This document shows positions 4,750 through 22,082 of a stretch of 64,000 nt of DNA, piece by piece (position 1 is the first letter of the stretch; every line of letters begins with the position of its first letter). The DNA is taken from NCBI GenBank assembly GCA_903938445.1, contig CAJADG010000082.1, positions 1 to 64,000 on the forward strand, written 5' to 3'. Position numbers and translations under genes: made by a program. This stretch comes from an uncultured Bacteroidota bacterium (GTDB taxonomy: Bacteria > Bacteroidota > Bacteroidia > Chitinophagales > Chitinophagaceae). The notes beneath the pieces are model-generated. The model was not told the origin of the DNA and searched no databases. It saw nothing but the letters and a program-made list of their open reading frames with translations.

Positions 4750-5376
4750 CTAATGGAATAAAATAGAGGCTTGCTTTTTAAAGGAATATTGGGTAGATAG
4801 GAAATGTGGCGGATAAGTGTTGATGATTTGTTGAATGCTACTTAATAGATTGAATGGATTTCCATAAACATACTTATGTTTTCTTTTCATTTTTTGGGCT
4901 AACGCATTTGCTGCAATTTTAGCAATAGAATCCTTTGTTGAAATATGAGCATATACAATTGAGTTATCATGCTTTTTTGCAAATTCAAAACATTCTCTAT
5001 ATAAATCAACAATGGCATTAGGTTTAAAACGAATTAAATTATATAAATGAATAATATCCAATTGTAACCAGATTATATTTTGATAACCATTTTTGCTTAG
5101 CGCACCATTATTTAAATAAGGCTGTTCCTGAATTTGATCCTGTTGTAGTTGTGGAGCTGACGCAATAATTCCCTCAAATGGATATTTTAAAATGACTTGT
5201 ATAGCACTTGCCGAAATTTGAATTTGCGCCTCAAAAGATTGTTTCAAATAGGTAAACTTAAGCTGACCCTTAATAACCTGTTTTGTTTTTGATTTAATAA
5301 TTAAATCGAAATCTGCTGAGGTTTTAGATACGGAAGTTAAATCGGGAGTTACGGGGGTAGAATGCTGTAAAAACAT
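4750..5376 (-). CDS. Uncharacterised 208-aa protein
   Basis: Intact ORF preceded by a consensus promoter and structured leader; no family recognised. Confidence 0.6.
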   Translation of the reverse strand: MFLQHSTPVTPDLTSVSKTSADFDLIIKSKTKQVIKGQLKFTYLKQSFEAQIQISASAIQVILKYPFEGIIASAPQLQQDQIQEQPYLNNGALSKNGYQNIIWLQLDIIHLYNLIRFKPNAIVDLYRECFEFAKKHDNSIVYAHISTKDSIAKIAANALAQKMKRKHKYVYGNPFNLLSSIQQIINTYPPHFLSTQYSFKKQASILFH

Positions 5377-5403
5377 AGTTTTTTTATTTTGACATGAATG
5401 ACC

Positions 5404-5468
5404 TCATCGATTTTACCACCGCGGAGTTAAACTCTCTCGGTTGGTACCCATTAAAGGGTTCTTGATGA
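5404..5468 (-). ncRNA. Candidate structured cis-regulatory leader RNA (three-way junction)
   Basis: Minus strand: P1 UCAUC/GAUGA (5464-5468 with 5404-5408), P2 ACCC-UUUAAU-GGGU (5446-5459), P3 ACC-AA-CCG...CGG-U-GGU with inner GAG-UUUAA-CUC (5415-5445). Confidence 0.45.
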
Positions 5469-5473
5469 TGGAA

Positions 5474-5505
5474 CAAAGGTAGGAAATTGGGAGATTACTA
5501 CCAAA
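5474..5505 (-). promoter_or_regulatory. Bacteroidota sigma-70-type promoter (TTTG-N20-TACCTTTG)
   Basis: Minus strand TTTG (5502-5505), 20-nt spacer, TACCTTTG (5474-5481). Confidence 0.75.
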
Positions 5506-5530
5506 AAAAGGCCGGTAAAATACCGGCCTA
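5506..5530 (-). terminator. Rho-independent terminator of the MoxR-like gene
   Basis: Minus strand GGCCGGTA-TTT-TACCGGCC followed by TTTTTTT. Confidence 0.85.
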
Positions 5531-21998: not shown

Positions 21999-22009
21999 GT
22001 GAGTTTTTG

Positions 22010-22082
22010 TGGCACCACCCGGGCTCGAACCGGGGACACAAGGATTTTCAGTCCTTTGCTCTACCAACTGAGCTACAGCGCC
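22010..22082 (-). tRNA. tRNA-Phe(GAA)
   Basis: Minus strand GGCGCTGTAGCTCAGTTGGTAGAGCAAAGGACTGAAAATCCTTGTGTCCCCGGTTCGAGCCCGGGTGGTGCCA; cloverleaf, anticodon GAA, 3' CCA not encoded. Confidence 0.95.

What the first reader, a model, noticed from the sequence alone, without database searches (positions are those of the whole stretch)
5404..5481. Compact three-way-junction RNA leader upstream of an unknown 208-aa protein
Seen: on the minus strand, right after a TTTG-N20-TACCTTTG promoter, the predicted 5' UTR can fold into P1 UCAUC/GAUGA closing two directly abutting hairpins, P2 ACCC-UUUAAU-GGGU and P3 ACC-AA-CCG ... CGG-U-GGU. Both apical loops carry UUUAA, allowing a self-complementary UUAA loop-loop contact. 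Known: aptamer-type leaders often have this compact junction design, and the AA-opposite-U internal loop flanked by CC/GG resembles the P3 pocket of SAM-I riboswitches (GGCAACC...GGUGCC). Inference: a cis-regulatory RNA, possibly a reduced or novel class. It lacks the SAM-I P2 kink-turn and P4, so I do not call it SAM-I.
Basis: partly seen in the sequence, partly recalled or inferred. Interest (0 to 1): 0.65.

Follow-up and report, generated by a model that had tools for sequence, protein, structure and literature searches.

The report
SAM riboswitch before an unknown gene
The folded RNA leader is real and belongs to a known class of switch that senses the metabolite S-adenosylmethionine; here it sits in front of a conserved protein of unknown function, and a second copy in the same genome sits, unusually, in front of a degenerate transfer-RNA gene.

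Summary
The minus-strand leader matches Rfam RF01725 (SAM-I/IV riboswitch) at window 5375-5473 with 53.8 bits against a cut-off of 41.1. Two parts were missed: a hairpin 3' of P1, and a pseudoknot (PK-2) from the P3 loop to AAACU, the five bases before the AUG. Relatives show compensatory changes in P1-P3 and PK-2. So it is a cis-regulatory RNA, but not a new class. All 13 orthologues found of the 208-aa gene carry it. The gene is under purifying selection (dN/dS about 0.19) and matches no known family or fold. In the same order the class precedes metK and metH. Best mechanism: SAM locks the aptamer and PK-2 beside the start codon and blocks translation. The unexpected part lies outside the window. 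A second copy (49.2 bits) sits between the promoter and the body of a degenerate second tRNA-Cys (A33, G73), an arrangement seen in 15 genomes of the genus. There the leader's 5' end copies the tRNA acceptor strand and is predicted to invade it.

The parts
5502..5505 (-). -33 promoter element TTTG; it overlaps the T-run of the terminator of the upstream gene
   Evidence: sequence; TTTG-N19/20-TAnnTTTG kept in orthologous loci
5474..5481 (-). -7 promoter element TACCTTTG
   Evidence: sequence; same position in orthologues
5375..5473 (-). SAM-I/IV riboswitch (RF01725), full model length
   Evidence: cmscan 53.8 bits, cut-off 41.1
5404..5468 (-). P1 (5468-5464 with 5408-5404) closing P2 (5459-5456 with 5449-5446) and P3 (5445-5443 with 5417-5415; 5440-5438 with 5421-5419; 5436-5434 with 5426-5424)
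   Evidence: covariation in 69 sequences; fold z -3.4
5415..5445 (-). SAM-I-type ligand pocket in P3: AA (5442-5441) opposite U (5418)
   Evidence: kept in essentially all aligned relatives; aligned to the RF01725 consensus
5391..5402 (-). hairpin 3' of P1 (P5 in SAM-IV naming), GUCA-UUCA-UGUC with one U-U mismatch
   Evidence: outer and third pair kept in relatives
5429..5433 (-). PK-2, 5' strand AGUUU in the P3 loop
5377..5381 (-). PK-2, 3' strand AAACU, directly abutting the start codon 5376-5374
4750..5376 (-). regulated gene, 208 aa, no known family; a five-stranded sheet followed by helices is predicted

Best explanation
The element is a SAM-I/IV riboswitch in the 5' UTR of a lineage-specific 208-aa protein. 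Transcription starts a few bases after TACCTTTG. When SAM is plentiful it binds the P1/P3 pocket and locks the three-way core. The P3 loop AGUUU then pairs with AAACU (PK-2), which is the last five bases before the AUG, and with the 3' hairpin this keeps the initiation region of the mRNA closed. When SAM falls, P1 and PK-2 loosen, the A-rich stretch before the AUG is free, and the protein is made. Shown here: class membership, compensatory changes, PK-2 complementarity across the class, conserved promoter, conserved linkage to the gene, purifying selection on the gene. Inferred: SAM binding, OFF direction, translational level. The role of the protein in SAM or methionine physiology is unknown.
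For: RF01725 match above the gathering score. Compensatory changes in P1-P3. PK-2 complementarity exceeds all 500 re-pairings in the genus set and all 1000 in the family/order set, with different sequences such as GAAC/GUUC, AGAACG/CGUUCU, UUUAAACG/UGUUUAAA and GUGAACG/UGUUCAC; in L031 the PK-2 strand UUAUGAG contains the AUG itself. All 13 orthologues of the 208-aa gene found in 61 relatives have the element upstream. Targets elsewhere in the order include metK and metH. No intrinsic terminator lies between aptamer and AUG, so control is more likely translational. dN 0.10, dS 0.54 for the gene. Ten genus members have the AUG directly after the aptamer; most others carry a longer platform whose UUCUUGGUGUGA can pair with the aptamer 5' strand or form a hairpin ending at the AUG (mean duplex energy -8.8 against -3.6 kcal/mol in window-type leaders; hairpin).
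Against: No binding or expression data. The window hairpin 3' of P1 has a U-U mismatch. PK-2 is weak in three window-type relatives (loop AGGAU with AACC). The unconstrained fold of 170 nt prefers pairing the P1 3' strand with codons 19-25, but that pairing is not conserved. The order-wide link to metK/metH does not say what the 208-aa protein does.
Confidence: 0.85

Rival explanations
1. Novel or reduced riboswitch class with a ligand other than SAM.
For: The target is an unknown gene, and other copies precede many unrelated unknown genes.
Against: Full-length match to RF01725, pocket letters kept, and the same class precedes metK and metH in the order.
Confidence: 0.07
2. Transcriptional control: SAM binding drives termination before the gene.
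For: Many SAM-I riboswitches work this way (established knowledge; no tool result here).
Against: No G+C-rich hairpin with a T-run between aptamer and AUG; the AUG lies immediately 3' of PK-2, which leaves no room for a terminator. Rho-dependent termination cannot be excluded.
Confidence: 0.12
3. Relic: a once functional aptamer kept by chance near a dying gene.
For: Copies near the second tRNA-Cys have been lost in several genomes, leaving scars.
Against: Compensatory changes, purifying selection on the 208-aa gene and 13 of 13 linkage.
Confidence: 0.03

Closest known systems
SAM-I/IV riboswitch (Rfam RF01725, SAM-I-IV-variant)
   Same: P1-P2-P3 core, P2 without internal loop, SAM-I pocket, hairpin 3' of P1, PK-2 from the P3 loop to the 3' end; above the curated score
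   Different: Target is an undescribed protein family; PK-2 abuts the start codon with no separate expression platform
SAM-IV riboswitch
   Same: P3-loop PK-2 after a 3' hairpin (PMC6890682)
   Different: No P2a/P2b division and no PK-1
SAM-I riboswitch (RF00162)
   Same: Ligand-pocket letters
   Different: No P2 kink-turn, no P4 between P3 and P1, no RF00162 match in the genome

Membership tests
SAM-I/IV (RF01725) | covariance-model score above the gathering cut-off | tested here: met
   53.8 bits, cut-off 41.1, full model
SAM-I/IV (RF01725) | P2 helix without internal loop (PMC2864571; PMC6890682) | tested here: met
   4-bp P2 with a 6-nt loop, covarying
SAM-I/IV (RF01725) | SAM-I-type core: J1/2 AUCAAGA, P3 CC-AA-CC opposite GG-U-GG | tested here: met
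   present in the window and kept in relatives
SAM-I/IV (RF01725) | hairpin 3' of P1 and PK-2 with the P3 loop | tested here: met
   hairpin with one U-U mismatch; PK-2 AGUUU/AAACU, class-wide complementarity reached by 0 of 1000 shuffles
SAM-I/IV (RF01725) | P4 helix mentioned for the crystallised SAM-I/IV (PMC6890682) | tested here: inconclusive
   about 7 nt between P3 and P1, no helix there; the RF01725 consensus shows none either, so it was not treated as defining
SAM-I/IV (RF01725) | binds SAM | not testable with these tools
   needs in-line probing or ITC
SAM-I (RF00162) | P2 kink-turn with PK-1, and P4 | tested here: not met
   P2 is 4 bp with a 6-nt loop; no RF00162 match in the genome
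SAM-IV | P2a/P2b with PK-1 | tested here: not met
   single short P2

The most novel reading that the evidence does not exclude
In this genus the same SAM riboswitch has been placed between the promoter and the body of a degenerate second tRNA-Cys (A33 instead of U33; G73 instead of U73), where it gates the folding of that tRNA-like RNA. Without SAM the leader's 5' end UGUCAU, a copy of the tRNA acceptor 5' strand, captures the acceptor 3' strand; SAM binding would lock P1 and let the cloverleaf form. This would be a riboswitch whose output is a tRNA-like RNA instead of an mRNA.
Probability: 0.3. Interest if true: 0.82.

Novelty: new member of a known kind. Interest (0 to 1): 0.5.

Why it matters
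The window element ties an undescribed protein family to SAM sensing and gives a compact case in which PK-2 ends exactly at the start codon. The wider survey shows that one genus carries this riboswitch in front of many unknown genes and in front of a tRNA-like gene. If the latter is functional, a riboswitch can control a structured RNA by swapping strands with it, a mode for which I found no report in the papers searched (only a part of the literature is held).

Tried and rejected
UUAA loop-loop contact: not conserved. SAM-I: no RF00162 match in the genome. Mini-ORF AUGUCAAAAUAA (5395-5384): absent from several orthologous leaders. Alternative pairing of the P1 3' strand with the coding region around 5303-5322: no counterpart seen in orthologues. 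Anti-P1 platform in the window: none (p 0.78). Assigning the 208-aa protein: no Pfam, NCBIfam, PDB-profile or PDB-fold match. My first strand-exchange runs used a tRNA acceptor index off by one; one search replaces them. A regular-expression tally of tRNA loci failed and was replaced by ARAGORN-based. The original SAM-I/IV structure paper was not held.

Full report
What is there. On the minus strand the window reads: terminator hairpin of the upstream MoxR-type gene (5528-5510, T-run to 5503), promoter TTTG-N20-TACCTTTG (5505-5474), then a structured leader and the ATG of a 208-aa ORF at 5376. cmscan of the whole window finds two RNAs above their curated scores: a tRNA and RF01725, the SAM-I/IV riboswitch, at 5375-5473 with 53.8 bits (cut-off 41.1, E 5e-6). 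The alignment covers the full 99-position model. The 65-nt core folds better than all 200 shuffles (z -3.4).

Comparative test. Searching the genus with the leader gave matches in 46 of 121 genomes. I aligned 69 distinct elements from the genus and family. For the named pairs 94.4% of cells are standard pairs (shuffled mean 88.0%, maximum 89.3%), further pair types 33 (maximum 27) and two-sided changes 22 (maximum 15). This shuffle does not correct for relatedness, but P2 shows CG, GC, UA and UG at the same pair, and P3 switches CG to GC. PK-2 complementarity between the P3 loop and the segment 3' of the hairpin is reached by 0 of 500 re-pairings in the genus and by 0 of 1000 in 28 sequences, mostly from outside the genus. 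The topology matches the published description: in SAM-IV a strand of the P3 loop pairs as PK-2 with the 3' end beyond hairpin P5, and SAM-I/IV lacks the P2a/P2b division and PK-1 (PMC6890682; PMC2864571).

Gene. The 208-aa protein has orthologues in 13 of 61 relatives, all in the same genus, and all 13 have the riboswitch upstream. dN is 0.10 and dS 0.54 against the 80%-identical orthologue. It has no Pfam or NCBIfam match. An AlphaFold2 model from five sequences (mean pLDDT 74) gives five strands followed by helices, with no convincing PDB match, and no profile hit in PDB sequences. Its function remains unknown.

Mechanism. In ten genus members, including the window, the AUG follows the aptamer directly, and in the window PK-2 (AGUUU with AAACU) ends at the base before it. 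In L031 the PK-2 strand contains the AUG. Most other leaders carry a longer platform in which UUCUUGGUGUGA can pair with the aptamer 5' strand CAUCAUCAAGAA or form a hairpin ending at the AUG. Both designs suggest that SAM turns translation off; this is inference. Elsewhere in the order the same class precedes S-adenosylmethionine synthetase (L021, L024, L169, L170, L173, L174, L176) and methionine synthase (L177), besides DUF192 proteins and MoxR ATPases, which supports SAM as the ligand.

The second copy. The genome has an 86%-identical copy at G000:C40:11535-11635, which scores 49.2 bits for RF01725. It lies directly upstream of a tRNA-Cys. Fourteen genomes have this order with only a short ORF or none between, and a fifteenth (G005) has a 137-aa ORF in between. 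Seven of the fourteen were scored above the RF01725 cut-off. These genomes also have an ordinary tRNA-Cys elsewhere where I checked. Of 51 second tRNA-Cys loci, 37 have A33 and G73 or A73 instead of U33 and U73; the riboswitch occurs only with the A33/G73 kind (15 of 27). U33 and U73 are, from general knowledge, the U-turn base and the main cysteinyl-tRNA synthetase identity base, so this RNA is probably not an ordinary translation tRNA.

The riboswitch sits after the tRNA promoter. In A33 loci without it, an inverted repeat (GTCTAT..ATAGTAGAC) mostly lies 46-50 bases before the tRNA, next to TAnnTTTG. With the riboswitch the same repeat lies 163-229 bases before the tRNA, or 559 in G005. Eight loci at 77-132 bases carry intermediate spacers, some with recognisable aptamer remains, such as G322. 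In G032 and G034 about 38 bases separate the aptamer from the tRNA and contain no TAnnTTTG, so the tRNA must be transcribed through the riboswitch. A MoxR tree puts riboswitch-bearing loci in both deep parts of the genus with about eight presence/absence changes, so loss is frequent (many forks are weakly supported). Short ORFs after the aptamer resemble the start of the DUF192-like ORF (for example MQTLPFQFQQ and MKHLPIPFEQ), so the cassette may once have carried that gene.

Strand exchange. In all 14 short-gap loci the leader begins UGU(C/U)AUC, which repeats the tRNA acceptor 5' strand (UGUCAUG; AGUCAUG in G372), whereas almost all other copies begin CAUCAUC or UAUCAUC. ViennaRNA predicts that this end pairs with the acceptor 3' strand (mean 5.8 pairs) and that the tRNA's own acceptor is open (0.05 pairs). 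Changing UG to CA gives 0.28 and 3.3 pairs. Chimeras with aptamers from other loci give 0.8 and 2.0 pairs, with 6% showing more than three invading pairs. The state with P1 and the cloverleaf lies 1.9-10.3 kcal/mol higher, so SAM binding could shift the balance in at least some species. Caveats: no tertiary, modification or cotranscriptional effects are modelled; the UGUCAU may be a footprint of insertion; one mRNA-type copy (G003:C180) also begins UGUCAUC.

Verdict. The window finding is a well-supported new member of a known riboswitch class with an unknown target. The tRNA-linked copies are the unusual part and deserve an experiment.

Noticed in passing
L002 1389-1601 (G000:C40), also L053, L067-L070, L072, L073, L075, L078-L081, L087: SAM-I/IV riboswitch directly upstream of a second, degenerate tRNA-Cys; the 5' end of the leader copies the tRNA acceptor strand.
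   Followed up: yes
second tRNA-Cys loci L098-L133 and L080: tRNA-Cys with A33 and G73 or A73 in 37 of 51 loci, with a conserved inverted repeat GTCTAT..ATAGTAGAC upstream of its promoter (possible operator). In G000 the exact repeat occurs only there.
   Followed up: partly
just 3' of the second tRNA-Cys in many loci: Conserved GCAAGCAATCG stretch between the tRNA and its terminator; the transcript may act as a longer RNA.
   Followed up: no
L056 (G005:C59), L071, L164, L171, L172: DUF192 proteins or look-alikes behind the same riboswitch; in tRNA-linked copies short ORFs look like their truncated starts.
   Followed up: partly
L082, L084-L086, L088, L091, L026, L027, L031 and others: The riboswitch precedes many unrelated small genes of unknown function, as if leader and promoter spread as a cassette.
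   Followed up: partly
window 5502-5528: Terminator of the upstream MoxR-type gene overlaps the -33 element of the riboswitch promoter; the arrangement recurs in orthologous loci.
   Followed up: partly
window 22009-22082 (-): tRNA-Phe (anticodon GAA), the only tRNA in the window.
   Followed up: no
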